Assembly (NCBI GenBank): GCA_016838885.1
Contig: JAEKNW010000215.1
Span: 1 to 52,457, forward strand
Origin: Candidatus Cloacimonadota bacterium
GTDB lineage: Bacteria; Cloacimonadota; Cloacimonadia; Cloacimonadales; JAFGVF01
DNA: 52,457 nucleotides
Direction of reading: 5' to 3'
Positions within the stretch are counted from its first letter, which is position 1. Each line of letters begins with the position of its first letter. Positions 25,916-48,600 of this stretch are shown one piece after another. Below the pieces are notes generated by a model, which saw only the letters and a program-made list of their open reading frames with translations, was not told the origin of the DNA and did not search any database. A program made the position numbers and the translations under genes.

Positions 25916-26380
25916 CTGGGAGTACCACTGGGAACGCCACTGGGAGCGCCTTCATCCCTGAAGGCAAAAAGATGAATGCCGGCAAGATGCTCTTGTGGAG
26001 TGGAAGCGTCCCGCTTCCACAACCAAGCTTTATCAAACTTGGTTAAATCTGGCGGCAAGATGCCCCCAGTCCATATCCCCTCGTTTCAGCTAGCAGGAGA
26101 TTGACAGCTGAGATACATTCTGGCAACAAGTGGTATGGAGTGGAAGCACCCTTGCTTCCACAACCAAGCTTTTCAAAGCTTGGTGAAATCTGGCGGCAAG
26201 ATGCCCCCAGTCCATATTCCCTCGCTTCAGCTAGCAGGAGATTGATAGTTGGGATACATTCTGGCGACCAGTGGTATGGAGTGGAAGCGTTTCTGGGAGC
26301 ATCACTGGGAGCGCCTTCATCCATGAAGGCAAAAAGATGAATGCCAGCAAGATGCTGGCGCTCCCAGTGGCGCTCCCAGG
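25916..26380. repeat. Composite repeat array, left of the DGR
   Basis: Non-coding array. It starts with a tail module (25916-25994), followed by tandem copies of a roughly 140-bp unit (25995-26133 and 26134-26274) that each begin TGGAGTGGAAGC. The unit contains a CAAGCTT/AAGCTTGG hairpin and the sequence GGCGGCAAGATGCCCCCAGT. A third partial copy and a full tail module (26275-26380) close the array. The tail module is itself an inverted repeat of CTGGGAGCGCC and GGCGCTCCCAG flanking smaller hairpins. The same array lies at 32774-33268 and one short copy at 48515. ORFs on both strands here are translations of repeat and I reject them. Confidence 0.9.
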
Positions 26381-26415: not shown

Positions 26416-26443
26416 TTGACAACTTTGCACTAAGATCAATAAT
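26416..26443 (+). promoter_or_regulatory. Sigma70-like promoter of the DGR target gene
   Basis: TTGACA (26416-26421) and AATAAT (26438-26443) spaced by 16 bp, 21 bp before the target ATG. The 5' leader would be only about 15 nt and would consist mainly of the GGAGG site. The promoter begins right after the repeat array ends. Confidence 0.6.
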
Positions 26444-26464
26444 TTGATCAAATGTGGAGGAATT

Positions 26465-27598
26465 ATGAAAAAAATATTTCTATTTATATTGTTTGGAGCT
26501 GTATCAGCTCTAATGGCAAACAATGTTCCTGTGGTATCTAATATTTCAGCTTCACAGCGAGGAGATGGAAGTTATATTGTAGATATTTACTATAATGTGC
26601 ATGATGCTGATGGAGACCCAATGACAATTACTTTACAAGTCTCTCCTGATAGTGGATTGACCTGGACTTTTAGCTGTACTCAAATCTCAGGTGATGTTGG
26701 AGCTAATATTTATTCCGGTAATAATAAGCATATTGTCTGGAATTTAGGCTCAGAACATCCCAATATTGCAGGTAATAGTTTTAAGTTTAGAATCAATGCT
26801 TATGATGGTATTGATGTTGACCCATTTGACTGGAGTTATGTAAGTGCCGGTACTTATACATGGGGACAAAATGACCAAATGCAAACTCTTGATTATGATT
26901 ATATGATAATGACCTATGAAGTAACAAATGCCCAATATAAGCAGTTTCTTGATGAAGCCCTAGGTATGGGAACAGCATGGATTTCGGGTAATTATGTTCA
27001 GGCTTATTATCCTGGTGATGAACATATCTCAGCAGGTAATCAAAATCTCTATGCTTTGGGTACACCATCTTCTTACAAATATGCTCAAATTTCATTTTAT
27101 GAAGGTGATTTTTATATTAATGAGCCAAGTGGTTATAACGATGGAGATTTTGACAACCATCCTGTAGTTTATGTAACATGGTTTGGTGCTTGGGCTTTTG
27201 CTCAGCATTATGATTTACGGCTTCCCACAGAACAAGAATGGGAAAAAGCGGCTAGAGCTTCTACAGGATATGAATATCCTTGGGGAAATTCATTAAGTGG
27301 TAATAGAGCTAACTATCGTGATTCAGGAGATCCCTGGGATAATGGAACAAGCCCGGTTGGTTATTATAATGGACAAAATGGGACTATAGACAGTCCTTCT
27401 CCTTATGGACTATATGATATGTGTGGCAATGTTCATGATTGGACTGATAGCTGGTATAATTCTGCCAATCGAGTCTTGCGTGGCGGTATTTGGGGCTACA
27501 GCTCTTACTACGACTATTTACGCTCGTGGTACCGCTACTACTACACTCCGACAAACAGCAGCTACAGCATCGGTTTTCGATGTGCCAGGACTCCATAA
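26465..27598 (+). CDS. DGR target: secreted FGE-sulfatase/C-type-lectin-fold protein
   Basis: 377 aa. The ATG at 26465 is chosen for its GGAGG site and because the signal peptide KKIFLFILFGAVSALMA then starts at residue 2; an upstream in-frame ATG (26444) has no ribosome site. Residues about 22-125 form an Ig/FN3-like domain (PVVSNISASQRGDGSYIVDI). Residues about 130-377 form an FGE-sulfatase domain: NAQYKQF, RLPTEQEWEKAAR, YPWGN, YGLYDMCGNVHDW, and VLRGG...GFRCAR. In this superfamily the last segment carries the binding face of the C-type-lectin fold, and here it is the DGR variable repeat. The catalytic cysteines of true FGE are not evident, so it is probably a ligand-binding surface protein. 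Avd and RT genes follow on the same strand. Confidence 0.93.
   Translation: MKKIFLFILFGAVSALMANNVPVVSNISASQRGDGSYIVDIYYNVHDADGDPMTITLQVSPDSGLTWTFSCTQISGDVGANIYSGNNKHIVWNLGSEHPNIAGNSFKFRINAYDGIDVDPFDWSYVSAGTYTWGQNDQMQTLDYDYMIMTYEVTNAQYKQFLDEALGMGTAWISGNYVQAYYPGDEHISAGNQNLYALGTPSSYKYAQISFYEGDFYINEPSGYNDGDFDNHPVVYVTWFGAWAFAQHYDLRLPTEQEWEKAARASTGYEYPWGNSLSGNRANYRDSGDPWDNGTSPVGYYNGQNGTIDSPSPYGLYDMCGNVHDWTDSWYNSANRVLRGGIWGYSSYYDYLRSWYRYYYTPTNSSYSIGFRCARTP
27463..27587 (+). other. DGR variable repeat (VR)
   Basis: 125 bp, aligned without gaps to the template repeat at 29135 (constant offset of 1672). 110 positions are identical and 15 differ; each differing site is A in the template. In the target frame the template has 14 AAY (Asn) codons. 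Thirteen of these are changed in the VR, giving eight Tyr, three Ser, one Gly and one Ile; a TCA to TCT change is silent. The changes are ten A-to-T and five A-to-G. The unvaried 3' part (ATCGGTTTTCGATGTGCC) probably acts as the initiation-of-homing region. The VR ends three codons before the stop. Confidence 0.97.
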
Positions 27599-27614
27599 TG
27601 GACCCTTGTGATTT

Positions 27615-27663
27615 GTACCTTGGTACTTGTAAATCGGGCAAAGCCCGATTTCGAATTTTTTTT
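27615..27663 (+). terminator. Hairpin pair downstream of VR: terminator and/or DGR homing structure
   Basis: Two inverted repeats follow the VR. GTACC/GGTAC (27615-27626) has a 2-nt loop. A perfect 9-bp stem, AAATCGGGC with GCCCGATTT (27631-27639 and 27643-27651), has an AAA loop, and eight T lie at 27656-27663. As RNA the second would be an intrinsic terminator separating the target gene from avd-RT. A hairpin or cruciform just downstream of VR is also known to promote retrohoming in the Bordetella phage DGR, so this may serve as that element. The sequence does not separate the two roles. Confidence 0.75.
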
Positions 27664-27677
27664 AGAGATTGAATTAT

Positions 27678-28028
27678 ATGAATAATACTAAAGAATTACC
27701 AATTATTCAAATGACTTATGATATAATTAAGTGGTTGATTCCAAATATTGATAAGTTACCTAGAACTCAAAAGTTTGTGTTGGGAGATAGAATAGAAATA
27801 GCATTTTTAGATTTTCTAAAATACATTTCTTTAGCTTCTAAAACGAAAGATAAATATGAGATTCTTACCATAGCAGATGCCAAGCTCATGGAAATAAAAT
27901 TGCTGTGTAGATTAATAGTAGATTTAAAATACATATCTATTAAGCAATTTGAGTATTTAAGTAAACAGTTATCTGAAATGGGAAAAATGTTAGGTGGTTG
28001 GATAAAATCAATTGAGTGCAGAAAATGA
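27678..28028 (+). CDS. avd: DGR accessory variability determinant (Avd)
   Basis: 116 aa from ATG 27678; a TTG at 27669 would add three residues but sits too close to the AGAG site. It is predicted all-helical, like the pentameric four-helix-bundle Avd (S23/bAvd-like family), with the family landmark LPRTQKFVLGDRIE near residues 24-37 and many Lys/Arg residues. In known DGRs Avd binds the RT and the template RNA and is needed for adenine-directed mutagenic cDNA synthesis. Its TGA overlaps the RT start in ATGA (28025-28028), so the two are translationally coupled. Confidence 0.93.
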   Translation: MNNTKELPIIQMTYDIIKWLIPNIDKLPRTQKFVLGDRIEIAFLDFLKYISLASKTKDKYEILTIADAKLMEIKLLCRLIVDLKYISIKQFEYLSKQLSEMGKMLGGWIKSIECRK

Positions 28029-29422
28029 AAACATTCAAAAATCTTTGGGAAAGCTTTGTAAGTTATGAAAATCTATTTATTGCTGCTATAAAAGCCTGTC
28101 AAAGGAAACGTTATAAACCAGCAGTCTTAGAGTTCAATAATAATCTTGGAGAAAATTTGCTGCAACTTCAAAAGGAATTACAGGATGGAGAATACATGCC
28201 TGGTAGTTACAAGTATTTCAAGATTACAGAACCAAAGGAAAGAGATGTTTATGCTGCACCATATAGAGATAGAATTGTTCATCACGCTTTGTTAAATGTG
28301 CTTGAACCAATCTGGGAAAAAAGATTTTATTATCATTCTTATGCCTGCAGAAAAGAAAAAGGAATGCATAGAGCAATCGATATTTGTCAAAAATACATAA
28401 GACAAAATAAATATATTCTCAAATGTGATATCAGAAAGTATTTTCAAAGCATTGATCATAAATTGTTGATGCATATAATCAAAAAAAGAATTGCTGATAA
28501 AAAACTCCTTGATTTGATATTCATGATTATAAATTTTTCTCCCCAAATGGACACACCCTATATTCTCTATTCAAATGATGATTTATTTACATATTTTGAA
28601 AGAAAAAAGGGTGTTCCTATTGGAAATCTAACCAGTCAATTTTTTGCAAATGTGTTTCTTAATGAATTAGATCACTGGGTTAAGCATAATAATAAAATTA
28701 AACATTATATAAGGTATATGGATGATTTCCTTTTATTTCATAATTCAAAAAGCTATTTAAGAAATGTAAGGCAACAAATGGAAGGTTTTCTTGACTCGAT
28801 GAGGTTAACTTTACATCCTCAAAAAACACAAATACTCCCTTCAAAAGATGGAGTGGCTTTTCTTGGGTTTCATATAAAATCAGATGTTAAAAGATTAAGA
28901 AAAGCTAATATTCAAAGATTTGTTAAAAGAATGAAAATTCAACAAAAATTATATTCTAATTACTCTATTGATTTAGCATATATAAAACAATCTATAAATG
29001 CTTGGATTGGACATGCCGGTCATGGCGATACATATAAATTGATCGCTAAACTGTTGTATAACTATCCATTGAAGAGGGGAAGAGATAGAAACTTAAATGA
29101 TGATTATAAGTACTTTGCGAATAGATCGAAAGATTTGCCAATCGAGTCTTGCGTGGCGGTAATTGGAACAACAACTCAAACAACGACAATTTACGCTCGT
29201 GGTACCGCAACAACAACACTCCGACAAACAGCAACAACAACATCGGTTTTCGATGTGCCAATACTTAAAAAAATATCTGACCAAGAGCTTTACGGAGCTT
29301 TTGGAGATTATGGAGTCCAGATCTATTCCAGCTGTAAAAGGCGAAAAGAAAAAAACACGAGGCAGTTAGTAGGTAACGAAAGCTGCCAAAGTCTTTTTAA
29401 TAGTAACACGTTAAAGGTTTAA
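28025..29422 (+). CDS. DGR reverse transcriptase with open frame running through the TR
   Basis: 465 aa from ATG 28025 (ATGA overlap with avd); GTG 28016 is possible but adds only three residues. The RT domain covers about residues 5-340: [29 protein letters not shown] (motif A region), [11 protein letters not shown] (199-205, the DGR hallmark in place of QGxxxSP), YMDD (231-234, catalytic), and [13 protein letters not shown] with VAFLGF. It copies the template RNA with errors at adenines. The frame does not stop after the catalytic part: it reads through the TR as a Thr-rich segment (about 371-412) and on for 53 residues. Most DGR RTs are about 300-400 aa, so the tail is unusual. The next gene starts ten bases later. 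Confidence 0.95.
29135..29259 (+). other. DGR template repeat (TR)
   Basis: 125 bp carrying about 40 adenines, with AAC clustered as AACAACAAC three times. Read in the target frame it encodes [16 protein letters not shown] and [12 protein letters not shown], the Asn-rich ancestral form of the VR. It lies inside the 3' part of the RT reading frame, shifted by one base relative to the target frame, so the RT reads AAC as Thr-rich ACA. Identity with the VR begins at 29135 and ends at 29259. Confidence 0.97.
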
Positions 29423-29432
29423 AGGAGAGTAA

Positions 29433-32400
29433 ATGAAAAAACTAATATTAATATTAATTATTTTACTAGGGATAGCATATTTATCTGCTGAAAGAGAATC
29501 TGCTTATGCAATTTCAGAAGTTGTGAGGTTAAACACAATTATTCCCTATCATGATGAAAGTTCATTTTCCTTATCAAGCAAATATAGATTGACTTCTTTG
29601 TTAGGAACCGGGTCTTTTGCAGTTTCTGAAAATGTTATATTAGAAACAGGAGGACAAAATTATTCAAGCTTGAGAGTTGTGCCTGTTGCCATGGCCCCCA
29701 ATCCTAGTACTATCCAGATACCAGAGTCTGGTTATGGCTATGCCTGGTTTGCTTTAGAAGGATTAATAGAGGGGAATTGGCTCCCAATTCATTCAAACAA
29801 TATAATTGCTCAAGATTCACAGGGACGAAGTTATAATTGTCAATCAGGCTCAGTATTGTATGGGTTTTTAACAGCTCCTTGGCAGATGCAGAATATAGGG
29901 ACTTTCTGTATTAAGATCGATGCAAACTTGATAGGAGATATAGGTTCAACAGAGAATTTTACTATAACAAGTGTAGATGGAAACTTGCTTTCATCAAGTC
30001 AAACTGTTAATGTAGAAGTTGTACCAATCGAATTTGTAGCAGGTTGGGAATATCGGTTGTGGTCGAGTATTGGAGTAAGCGCTAATGCTGGAATAGGTCC
30101 ATTAAGTATGGCTTCAGTTGGGGTTGGAATAGGTGGAGGATTAGGTTCTAATCTTGAAATTAAGTATGACTCATCTACGGACACATGGAATGAATTTGTT
30201 ATTAAGAGAACAGATGATCTTTTTTTGGAGGCAAATGCCCACGTTGGTGCTCCCAAATTCGGGGGTATACACCAAGGGGTTAGTGCAGAAGTGGAAGCAG
30301 GGATTAAATTTCCTTACACACAATCTTATGAATTTGATATAAATGACCTAGAGGGAGTTGAATCTCTTTTTGCATTCTATCTTATGTATGAACCTGCTAT
30401 TATTTACGCCGGTAGTCTTGCCAATAAGCAAACTGCAGTTTCATTGCTATCATGGTTGGCAGAGGGGATTATTGAAAACTCAGATGAATATAATTTAGGT
30501 ATTTCAAGAGTTTATGACCAATCAGGAATAGATATGTTTGCTGGTGCTGGAATTGATCTTGGTTGGGGGAATGAGAACTATCCGGTAGAATTTGGAGCAT
30601 CAGCAAGTTTTGGAGCAGAAGCCCATATTGGAATGAACTGGAGAAAATTTGTAAATAACAGGAGGGAGAGTGAACTATACACTTATGGTAACCTATCACT
30701 TTCTGCTCATGCAGGTTCAACCGGGAAAATCTGTGGAGTAAACTCTTCAAAATTCAAACTTGGGAAGACTTACGGAGGTTCATTAGGTGGAGGCTTTAGG
30801 TTCACTTCAGGTTCAGATCATAATGGATATTTAGATAAATTAAAATTAGAAATGTTTTATAATTCCGATGTAGCAGAGCTTAACATTGCAGGTATGAATG
30901 GAGAGCAATCTCAGTATAGTTTCTATCTGGAAGCAGAGCAAACTGATTTGATAAACTTGATGAATAATGCAGCCGATTTACCCTCCGAAATCTATAATAT
31001 TGGAGAATCTGCTTTTACTGCAGCAGTGGATAATAACTCTTTTAGTTCTGATATTTCCAATATCTTAGAAACTATCTACGAAGAACAAAACGATGATTAT
31101 CCGGTTTCTATAGCTTATGGTGTAGATGGTATGAGTAAAAGTTCTTCTGAGTATGAAATTGAGCTGGCGATTCCATTAGCTTCACCTTTACATCTTAATT
31201 TTGGAACCGGACTTTCCTTTGGTGATTATTATAAATATAATCTATATAATGGATATTGGGTAAGAGGCATGCCATATTTACAATCTGAAGTAGTTAATCC
31301 TCCTACAAAAAATCAAACTTTTACAGGGGTAATGAATGAACTCTGGGATAGGGTTACTAGTGGTGATACATGGAGTCAATTACGGGGTATTATTTTACGT
31401 CAATTACTAAAAACTGCAATAGGTTGGATTCCGGGCTTAAGGGATCAAGAACAAGCAATTGAAATTAATACAAATGGGTCTGAACTAATTATTCAAGAAT
31501 TTTCTATACCTACAAGTATTGATAGTGCCTTTGTAAGGTATTGGACTTGGAATGAAGAACCTCCACAAAGAAATATGAGCTATAATCAAAGGCAATCATT
31601 AAGCAACTTTAACAGAGCATTAAGAAGTGTAAGAGAAGAAGCTGTGGGAATGAAATATGGTATTGGGGGATTTTATTCTCTTGAACCTCACAATGAAAGT
31701 TTTGCTGATACAACTAAAATCAGAATTAAATACTCTGATGCAGAAATTACAGGTCTTGATGAATCAACACTCTCTGTTTATTGGGAAGATGAAGTAGGAG
31801 GATGGCATTATTTACCTTCCATTGTTGATACTGATTTAAACTATGTTGAAGCTCGAATTACTGACTTTAAAACTTATACTTTAGCCCCTGCTTTACCTCA
31901 AGGACAATTTGGAATGATGTCTAACCCTGATTCCTTAGAAGCAAATGGAGCTACAACTGCTATGATTACTTCTGACTTGATTACTAATAATAATGGTAGT
32001 CTTGTTGAAGATGGTACCGAGTTTACTATTCAAATCACAAACTCAATAATTATTACACCAGATGCAAATCTTCAGAAAGAAGGACATCAATTAATGTCTT
32101 CTAATGGGATTTTACAATATGAAATTCAATCAGGACAAGTTGCTCATCCAATTGAGATTGTTGTGGCTTCTATTAATGGATTTGCTTACTCAACCTTAAC
32201 AATAAACCAGTATGATTATTCTGCTCCTCAAGCACCAATCAATTTATCTGGTATACCTCTTCATAAATCCATATTGCTGAATTGGGAAGAAGCATCAGAT
32301 ATTGATTTAGCTGGATATGTTATTTCCTATGACACAGATCAAAGTGGAGAACCATATAACGGAACTGCAAATGTTAATGGAATAAATAGTCCTATTACTT

Positions 32401-32756
32401 TAGGATGCATAGATAGTTATCGTCTTTCTGGGTTAACAAATGATCAAACATATTACATTACAGTTCAAGCTTTTGATGTAGCAGGAAATGTTAGTGATTT
32501 TTCAAATGAAATAGTCCTTTTACCACAACTAAATGAAGTAAAGGATTTATCGATTCAAGCAAGTGTTAACGGTACAGTCTTAAATTGGTCTCCAGTTATA
32601 GGAGCAAACTCCTATAAAATTTATCGTAGTTCTTCACCTATAGAAAACTCTTCCAGAATAGAGTTGATAAAACAAACAACAGCTACTCATTATACTGATA
32701 TACAAGCATTGAATTCTGATAAATACTTCTATGTTGTGGTGGTGGTAGCTTATTAA
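29433..32756 (+). CDS. Large secreted FN3/Ig-like protein
   Basis: 1107 aa. A signal peptide (about 1-19) is followed by about 700 residues rich in Gly, Ser and Tyr that I cannot assign. Residues about 820-925 resemble an invasin/Big-type Ig domain (SNPDSLEANGATTAMITSD). Two FN3 domains follow (about 930-1032, and 1037 to the end with VLNWSPVIGANSYKIYRSSS). No membrane anchor or sorting domain follows the last FN3, so the anchoring mode is unclear. A perfect AGGAGAG site precedes the ATG, ten bases after the RT stop, so it may be co-transcribed with the DGR. It has no copy of the VR. It could be a surface adhesin or a partner of the DGR target; that is inference. Confidence 0.8.
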   Translation: MKKLILILIILLGIAYLSAERESAYAISEVVRLNTIIPYHDESSFSLSSKYRLTSLLGTGSFAVSENVILETGGQNYSSLRVVPVAMAPNPSTIQIPESGYGYAWFALEGLIEGNWLPIHSNNIIAQDSQGRSYNCQSGSVLYGFLTAPWQMQNIGTFCIKIDANLIGDIGSTENFTITSVDGNLLSSSQTVNVEVVPIEFVAGWEYRLWSSIGVSANAGIGPLSMASVGVGIGGGLGSNLEIKYDSSTDTWNEFVIKRTDDLFLEANAHVGAPKFGGIHQGVSAEVEAGIKFPYTQSYEFDINDLEGVESLFAFYLMYEPAIIYAGSLANKQTAVSLLSWLAEGIIENSDEYNLGISRVYDQSGIDMFAGAGIDLGWGNENYPVEFGASASFGAEAHIGMNWRKFVNNRRESELYTYGNLSLSAHAGSTGKICGVNSSKFKLGKTYGGSLGGGFRFTSGSDHNGYLDKLKLEMFYNSDVAELNIAGMNGEQSQYSFYLEAEQTDLINLMNNAADLPSEIYNIGESAFTAAVDNNSFSSDISNILETIYEEQNDDYPVSIAYGVDGMSKSSSEYEIELAIPLASPLHLNFGTGLSFGDYYKYNLYNGYWVRGMPYLQSEVVNPPTKNQTFTGVMNELWDRVTSGDTWSQLRGIILRQLLKTAIGWIPGLRDQEQAIEINTNGSELIIQEFSIPTSIDSAFVRYWTWNEEPPQRNMSYNQRQSLSNFNRALRSVREEAVGMKYGIGGFYSLEPHNESFADTTKIRIKYSDAEITGLDESTLSVYWEDEVGGWHYLPSIVDTDLNYVEARITDFKTYTLAPALPQGQFGMMSNPDSLEANGATTAMITSDLITNNNGSLVEDGTEFTIQITNSIIITPDANLQKEGHQLMSSNGILQYEIQSGQVAHPIEIVVASINGFAYSTLTINQYDYSAPQAPINLSGIPLHKSILLNWEEASDIDLAGYVISYDTDQSGEPYNGTANVNGINSPITLGCIDSYRLSGLTNDQTYYITVQAFDVAGNVSDFSNEIVLLPQLNEVKDLSIQASVNGTVLNWSPVIGANSYKIYRSSSPIENSSRIELIKQTTATHYTDIQALNSDKYFYVVVVVAY

Positions 32757-32773
32757 TTTTCTAGGAGATGAGG

Positions 32774-33268
32774 TATGGAGAGGAAGTGTTCTTTATGGAG
32801 TGGAAGCGTCCCGCTTCCACAACCAAGCTTTATCAAGCTTGGTTAAATCTGGCGGCAAGATGCCCCCAGTCCATATCCCCTCGCTTCAGCTAGCAGGAGA
32901 TTGACAGCTGGGTTAGATTCTGGCAACAAGTGGTATGGAGTGGAAGCGTCCCGCTTCCACAACCAAGCTTTTCAAAGCTTGGTGAAATCTGGCGACAAGA
33001 TGCCCTTATGGAGTGGAAGCGTCTCGCTTCCACAACCAAGCTTAATCAAGCTTGGTGAAATCTGGCGGCAAGATGCCCCCAGTCCATATCCGCTCACTTC
33101 AGCTAGCAGGAGATTGATAGCTGGGATACATTCTGGCGACAGGTGGTATGGAGTGGAAGCGTTACTGGGAGCCTCACTGGGAGCGCCTTCATCCCTGAAG
33201 GCAAAAAGAAGAATGCCAGCAAGATGCTGGCGCTCCCAGTGGCGCTCCCAGTGGTACTCCCTGTGGCG
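32774..33268. repeat. Composite repeat array, right of the DGR block
   Basis: Non-coding array of the same family and orientation as 25916-26380. Units start at 32794, 32934 (short, 73 bp) and 33007, with a partial one at 33147. A tail module (33160-33268) ends in an inverted copy of the 33 bp that open the left array (33229-33261 against 25918-25950, one mismatch). Frames open on both strands are rejected as repeat translations. The remaining 87 bases before coaBC contain a TTGACA at 33297 but no well-spaced -10. Confidence 0.9.
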
Positions 33269-33355
33269 TTCTCAAAAAAACACCACCACAATTATCTTGA
33301 CATATAATTAAAACACTAAAAAGCTATATCATATCAAACTAAAAGGTAAATAAAT

Positions 33356-48514: not shown

Positions 48515-48600
48515 TATGGAGTGGAAGCGTCCCGCTTCCACAGCCAAGCTTCCAGCTTGGTAAATCTGGCGGCAAGATGCCCCCAGTCCATATCCCCGCT
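48515..48600 (+). repeat. Single short copy of the composite repeat
   Basis: TATGGAGTGGAAGCGTCCCG with the CAAGCTT hairpin and GGCGGCAAGATGCCCCCAGT is the first half of the unit that forms the arrays at 25995 and 32794. It is shortened inside the hairpin. Frames open on either strand here are repeat translations. Confidence 0.85.

What the first reader, a model, noticed from the sequence alone, without database searches (positions are those of the whole stretch)
26416..29422. Complete diversity-generating retroelement with a secreted FGE/lectin-fold target
VR and TR align over 125 bp without gaps; all 15 differences fall on TR adenines, the hallmark of DGR mutagenesis. The order is target-VR, hairpin, avd, RT, TR. 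RT has IGNLTSQ and YMDD. The target has a signal peptide, so the variable surface is displayed outside the cytoplasm. The DGR type is established knowledge; this locus is apparently chromosomal, between housekeeping genes.
Basis: partly seen in the sequence, partly recalled or inferred. Interest (0 to 1): 0.92.

Follow-up and report, generated by a model that had tools for sequence, protein, structure and literature searches.

The report
Protein-diversifying retroelement with partner gene
This stretch of a bacterial chromosome holds a complete diversity-generating retroelement, a known machine that rewrites one patch of an exported lectin-like protein; its RNA template is buried in the tail of its own enzyme gene, and it sits beside a large, otherwise unknown exported protein that keeps company with such variable proteins in related bacteria.

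Summary
VR 27463-27587 and TR 29136-29260 align over 125 bp without gaps; all 15 differences fall on the 42 TR adenines. The locus has a signal-peptide FGE-fold target, an Avd, and a DGR-type reverse transcriptase ([12 protein letters not shown]), whose best solved relative is the BPP-1 phage enzyme. It is an ordinary DGR in kind.

Three things were missed. (1) The TR is not after the RT gene but wholly inside its ORF, which ends 160 nt further on. The same holds in two relatives. Synonymous-site conservation and frame changes show that this tail is kept as RNA, not as protein. (2) Just 3' of the TR lies a structured RNA with strong covariation that matches Rfam RT-14. In 125 genomes of the phylum RT-14 hits only at DGR TRs. 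It is best read as the DGR priming/spacer RNA. (3) A 1107-aa exported protein starts 11 nt after the RT. Of nine full-length family loci, eight with readable neighbours sit next to an FGE or variable lectin-like gene, three with complete DGRs of unrelated RT lineages.

Activity was not tested. Class known; details new.

The parts
26416..26443 (+). promoter-like site TTGACA-16-AATAAT ahead of the target
   Evidence: 11 of 12 consensus matches, but such sites are no more frequent here than in shuffles; weak
26465..27598 (+). target gene, 377 aa: signal peptide (MKKIFLFILFGAVSALMA), Ig/cadherin-like N-domain, C-terminal FGE-sulfatase (C-type-lectin fold) domain
   Evidence: Pfam PF03781 E 3.9e-37; AlphaFold model pLDDT 76, Foldseek to formylglycine-generating enzyme E 1.4e-10; both FGE catalytic cysteines absent, their places taken by mutable codons
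27463..27587 (+). variable repeat (VR), 3' end of target
   Evidence: 125 bp against TR, 15 of 15 mismatches at TR adenines
27568..27587 (+). IMH-like 3' end of VR: identical to TR, its adenines unchanged
   Evidence: alignment; role inferred from BPP-1
27631..27651 (+). 9-bp stem hairpin with AAA loop, 43 nt after VR, followed by T-run: target-site hairpin and/or terminator of the target transcript
   Evidence: similar stems at +40/+41 in L060 and L028, absent in most relatives
27678..28028 (+). avd, accessory variability determinant, 116 aa
   Evidence: NCBIfam NF033474 DivGenRetAVD E 1.8e-32 (cut-off met), Pfam bAvd E 5e-19, PHROG Avd
28025..29422 (+). reverse transcriptase ORF, 465 aa; conserved RT to about 29129; ATGA overlap with avd; last ~98 codons are TR and spacer RNA
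   Evidence: Pfam RVT_1 E 1.6e-27, PIGNLTSQ and YMDD, PDB 8ub7 bRT E 3.8e-46
29136..29260 (+). template repeat (TR), nested inside the RT ORF in a different frame from the target
29264..29395 (+). structured spacer RNA 3' of TR (Rfam RT-14-like), likely primer/RT-Avd binding domain of the TR-RNA
   Evidence: RF02921 full length, 36.3 bits, below gathering score; covariation in relatives
29361..29387 (+). terminal stem of the spacer RNA with AGUA/GAA internal loop
   Evidence: 10 of 10 pairs with compensatory changes across 16 sequences
29433..32756 (+). p1107: 1107-aa exported protein, amphipathic beta-strand regions, C-terminal FN3 domains; proposed partner of the variable protein
   Evidence: full-length family at 9 loci, 8 of 8 with readable neighbours beside an FGE or VR-bearing gene; Pfam only fn3
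25916..26379 (+). array of ~140-bp intergenic repeats on the left side
   Evidence: genome-wide repeat, not DGR-specific
32772..33300 (+). array of the same repeats on the right side

Best explanation
This is a chromosomal, most probably functional diversity-generating retroelement. A transcript that carries the RT ORF, TR and a 3' structured spacer is copied by the RT-Avd complex; the spacer RNA folds and primes cDNA synthesis at the 3' end of the TR, adenines are miscopied, and the cDNA replaces the VR at the end of the target gene. The result is an exported FGE-fold protein with up to about 15 randomised residues on its lectin-fold face (13 now differ from the TR, mostly Tyr and Ser). The TR and spacer happen to be read through by the RT ORF, so one RNA serves as message for the enzyme tail and as template. 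The exported protein most likely works together with p1107, a large, probably outer-membrane or surface protein, as a variable binding surface. Shown: anatomy, adenine specificity, RT and Avd family, RNA covariation, gene association. Inferred: transcription, priming, present activity, surface display, partnership. The stated confidence is for the DGR itself; for the partnership with p1107 it is about 0.5.
For: Adenine-only TR/VR differences; across 19 TR/VR pairs from this and related loci, 334 of 728 A sites changed against 10 of 1445 non-A sites, the pairs having been found with an A-bias filter. Avd and RT families. RT tree. AAY-rich TR with no possible stop. Spacer RNA matches RT-14, hits only after TRs in 125 genomes, and its terminal stem covaries. 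Synonymous sites between L058 and L059 changed 157/203 in the RT core, 1/36 in TR, 3/24 after TR. p1107 beside FGE/variable genes at 8 of 8 loci with readable neighbours and beside DGRs of three RT lineages.
Against: One assembled VR only: no reads, so ongoing diversification is not shown. The RT-14 match in the window is below Rfam's gathering score, and my model R1 does not find the BPP-1 spacer. The hairpin is 43 nt from VR, outside the 4-34 bp range reported for phage DGRs (PMC3240598), its loop is not GRNA, and most relatives lack it. p1107 is absent from most DGR-bearing genomes of the order, so it is not needed for DGR function. Its structure model is poor (pLDDT 55).
Confidence: 0.93

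Rival explanations
1. A DGR that is now inactive: the cassette is intact in sequence but silent, and the VR is frozen.
For: Only one VR allele is available; a relative (G074, L122) keeps target and p1107 without avd/RT/TR, and its target has an in-frame stop, so cassettes do decay in this group.
Against: Avd, RT, TR, spacer stem and target ORFs are all intact here; 13 of 15 AAY codons differ from the TR yet non-A sites are identical, as expected if the copy is recent.
Confidence: 0.15
2. The RT tail over TR and spacer is a real protein domain (for example a nucleic-acid-binding extension), not just an open frame over RNA.
For: The long ORF is also present in L058 and L059 (436 and 433 aa), which share frame and stop position.
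Against: Synonymous sites there are almost frozen, as in non-coding RNA; after the TR the window is read in another frame than L058/L059; L028, in the same clade, stops before the TR.
Confidence: 0.1
3. p1107 is a passenger: an unrelated exported protein that happens to lie near FGE genes, which are common in these genomes.
For: The genome has about 17 other FGE-domain matches; most DGRs of the order lack p1107.
Against: 8 of 8 p1107 loci with readable neighbours adjoin an FGE or VR-bearing gene, in both orders, including a DGR with a different target type (G091, L067).
Confidence: 0.2

Closest known systems
Bordetella phage BPP-1 DGR (mtd, avd, brt)
   Same: VR at the 3' end of a lectin-fold target, Avd, RT with SQ and YMDD motifs, TR followed by a spacer that folds, adenine mutagenesis, hairpin after VR
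   Different: BPP-1 is a phage with order mtd-avd-TR-spacer-brt; here the TR and spacer lie at the 3' end of, and inside, the RT ORF, on a chromosome without phage genes; spacer homology to BPP-1 not detected
DGR structural group 3 of the DiGReF survey (TR overlapping the RT ORF; PMC3521204)
   Same: TR overlaps the 3' end of the RT ORF
   Different: here the whole TR and most of the spacer RNA lie within the ORF; the survey text gives no such detail
DGRs with FGE-sulfatase-superfamily targets in bacterial chromosomes (PMC3521204) and cellular DGRs in general (PMC8144416)
   Same: secreted or membrane FGE/C-type-lectin target, cellular DGR
   Different: linked p1107 gene, which I did not find described in the papers that I could read
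Rfam RF02921 RT-14 RNA
   Same: full-length match directly after the TR here and in relatives, two of them above the gathering score
   Different: filed as a candidate sRNA, by its name associated with RT genes; here assigned to the DGR template RNA. The source paper could not be read

Membership tests
Diversity-generating retroelement | TR/VR pair with differences confined to TR adenines | tested here: met
   15 of 15 mismatches at A, P about 1e-8
Diversity-generating retroelement | RT of the DGR clade with SQ motif | tested here: met
   [12 protein letters not shown] against PQGGVISP/YADD of the genome's group II RT; best PDB match BPP-1 bRT; tree
Diversity-generating retroelement | accessory protein Avd (or substitute) | tested here: met
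   NF033474 above cut-off, E 1.8e-32
Diversity-generating retroelement | VR within a target ORF, lectin-type fold | tested here: met
Diversity-generating retroelement | identical 3' IMH and downstream hairpin | tested here: inconclusive
   20 nt identical 3' end; hairpin at +43 with AAA loop, not the GRNA type, absent in most relatives
Diversity-generating retroelement | structured spacer RNA 3' of TR | tested here: met
Diversity-generating retroelement | adenine-specific mutagenic retrohoming takes place | not testable with these tools
   no reads, no experiment
Rfam RT-14 RNA (RF02921) | score at or above gathering score 48.1 | tested here: not met
   36.3 bits in the window; relatives G001 59.4 and G122 49.4 do meet it
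Group II intron reverse transcriptase | NCBIfam TIGR04416 cut-off 300 bits | tested here: not met
   176 bits; Pfam finds RVT_1 only
Formylglycine-generating enzyme | two copper-binding catalytic cysteines | tested here: not met
   aligned positions of CHESYC read GYSSYY
Prophage-borne DGR | phage structural genes around it | tested here: not met
   neighbours by reading of the ORF list are ribD-, spoIID-, coaBC-, queA-, ligA-like; no close phage match, best identity under 60%

The most novel reading that the evidence does not exclude
p1107 and the FGE-fold protein form a dedicated two-part surface receptor, which several unrelated DGRs have been recruited to diversify; and Rfam RT-14 (perhaps other RT-n RNAs) is the priming domain of DGR template RNAs, here compressed inside the RT coding sequence so that translation and template use compete on one RNA.
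Probability: 0.4. Interest if true: 0.6.

Novelty: new member of a known kind. Interest (0 to 1): 0.42.

Why it matters
The DGR itself adds one case to thousands. What could be useful is around it. An orphan Rfam family (RT-14) gets a concrete role that can be tested, as the 3' domain of DGR template RNAs. A covarying RNA within a coding sequence gives a natural case of one RNA used both as enzyme message and as mutagenic template. And p1107 offers a lead on what chromosomal DGR targets do, which the DiGReF survey (PMC3521204) calls unclear: a fixed partner gene means that the variable protein may act in a defined surface complex.

Tried and rejected
TR-in-ORF as a conserved protein domain: rejected on frame change and frozen synonymous sites. 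DGR as a mobile cassette bounded by the flanking repeats: rejected, the ~140-bp repeat matches at about 100 places in the assembly. Empty-site test by synteny of spoIID and coaBC: led nowhere, spoIID-like neighbours are not linked to coaBC in relatives. Remote VRs in the genome: none. A spacer remnant between target and p1107 in G074 (AAGTAGAGTCGAAAGG): one motif match, expected 0.014, but alignment is no better than shuffles and the arms do not pair; not claimed. Homology of the spacer to BPP-1: by eye similar (TCCTGCT, hairpins), not found by model R1. RNA for MIR5638 in the repeats: chance. Viral contigs with this RT: none. p1107 fold search: model too poor; FN3 and FadL-barrel matches have TM of about 0.1-0.3 and are only a hint.

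Full report
Observation. The 125-bp VR (27463-27587) and TR (29136-29260) align without gaps and differ at 15 positions, all of them adenines in the TR. Among 42 TR adenines 15 changed, among 83 other bases none. The TR in the target's frame has 15 AAY codons, 13 changed in the VR, mostly to Tyr and Ser, and no codon can mutate to a stop. The changes are A>T 10, A>G 5, A>C 0; over 19 TR/VR pairs A>C is also the rarest (162 G, 135 T, 37 C). Those pairs were found with a filter for A bias, so only the spectrum, not the A bias, is independent evidence. The last 20 nt of VR and TR are identical, adenines included, as at the IMH of BPP-1.

Proteins. The target (26465-27598, 377 aa) starts with a signal peptide by eye, has an Ig/cadherin-like stretch and ends in an FGE-sulfatase domain (E 3.9e-37). 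Its model (pLDDT 76; low confidence in the VR loops) matches formylglycine-generating enzymes (E 1.4e-10). In the sequence alignment the two cysteines of the FGE active site (CHESYC) lie opposite GYSSYY, in mutable codons, so it should not be an FGE enzyme. Avd is a clear family member. The RT carries PIGNLTSQ and YMDD, matches the BPP-1 bRT best among solved structures and groups with DGR RTs of relatives, away from the group II RT of the same genome (PQGGVISP). The genome holds one TR and one VR and 17 other FGE-domain matches besides this target and TR.

TR inside the RT gene. The RT ORF goes on through the TR and stops at 29420-29422. In two relatives, L058 (G088) and L059 (G082), the TR is also inside the RT ORF; in L028 (a Neomarinimicrobiota MAG), of the same clade (100/100), the RT stops 23 nt before the TR; in the other relatives the TR starts from 24 nt before to 58 nt after the RT stop, apart from the differently built L029 and L067. 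Between L058 and L059, 157 of 203 synonymous sites of the RT core differ, but only 1 of 36 in the TR and 3 of 24 after it, and after the TR the window uses another frame than they do. So the tail is kept for its RNA and the extra peptide is probably a by-product. TR overlap with an RT end is a recorded DGR arrangement (group 3 in PMC3521204).

Spacer RNA. Rfam RT-14 (RF02921) matches 29264-29395 over its full length, 36.3 bits against a gathering score of 48.1. Relatives give the same match directly after their TRs, two above the gathering score. In 125 genomes of the phylum there are seven matches at E <= 0.01, and each follows a DGR TR. On a sequence alignment of 16 such RNAs the terminal stem has compensatory changes in 10 of 10 pairs; the covariation score is 0.64 against at most 0.19 for slid partners and 0.22 for shuffles. 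The stem encloses a conserved AGUA/GAA internal loop, which looks like a loop E motif (own knowledge). A model of the 16 also finds the element in DGRs not used to build it (L106, L087, L088). In BPP-1 the spacer after the TR folds, recruits bRT-Avd and primes cDNA synthesis (PMC12875486). By position this RNA is its counterpart; sequence homology to BPP-1 was not detected.

Linked gene p1107. An ORF of 1107 aa with a signal peptide starts 11 nt after the RT stop. Pfam sees only FN3 near its end. Three regions (180-310, 350-480, 555-620) have strong alternating hydropathy, above shuffles, as in amphipathic strands, which with weak FadL-like matches of a poor model hints at an outer-membrane barrel. 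Full-length relatives are rare: nine loci, counting one partial, in eight of 125 genomes. At the eight with readable neighbours an FGE or VR-bearing gene is directly beside it or, as here, joined to it by the cassette: G074 (target 68% identical, no avd/RT/TR, target with an in-frame stop), G007 twice, G026, G027, G029 (with DGR), G091 (with a DGR of another RT lineage and another target type) and the window. By rough estimate from about 17 FGE genes per genome, a random gene has about a 1% chance of such a neighbour. Shared ancestry makes the eight not independent, but the order of genes, the target type and the RT lineage all vary.

Setting. The contig carries chromosomal genes and no phage genes (by reading). 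The order is probably Cloacimonadales: genome G001 is one contig of 2,246,820 bp, which I recall as Candidatus Cloacimonas acidaminovorans (inference, own knowledge). The DGR plus p1107 lies between two arrays of a ~140-bp repeat that is found all over the genome.

Verdict. The finding is right and the system is of a known kind. Its interest lies in the nested template RNA, the assignment of RT-14, and the p1107 association; none of these is tested at the bench.

Noticed in passing
25916-26379, 32772-33300, 48515-48597: A ~140-bp intergenic repeat with two palindromes (GTGGAAGCGTCCCGCTTCCAC, ACCAAGCTTTATCAAGCTTGGT), often in tandem, about 100 matches in the assembly, many at contig ends.
   Followed up: partly
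L122 (G074:C188): Target 68% identical to the window's lies 75 bp before p1107 with no avd, RT or TR between them, and has an in-frame TGA: possibly a locus that lost its DGR.
   Followed up: partly
L067 (G091:C118) 27-223 and 1024-1220: A second kind of DGR: 197-bp TR upstream of the RT, 26 of 26 differences at A, a target end (LPGGYR...WSSTE...SVRCVRD) unlike FGE, and p1107 overlapping the RT stop.
   Followed up: partly
L092 (G052:C47): The RNA after this DGR's TR matches both Rfam RT-14 (47.2 bits) and RT-17 (28.6 bits); other RT-n families may also be DGR spacers.
   Followed up: no
L060, L063, L069, L072 after VR: Where the hairpin is missing or besides it, a motif like TTTTTACCTTTTTRC recurs about 25-35 nt after the VR.
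   Followed up: no
L059 10569-10651 (-): Group II intron RNA match (RF00029, 52.5 bits) directly after the DGR spacer of G082.
   Followed up: no
L074 and L082: Two VRs for one TR in each of these relatives.
   Followed up: no
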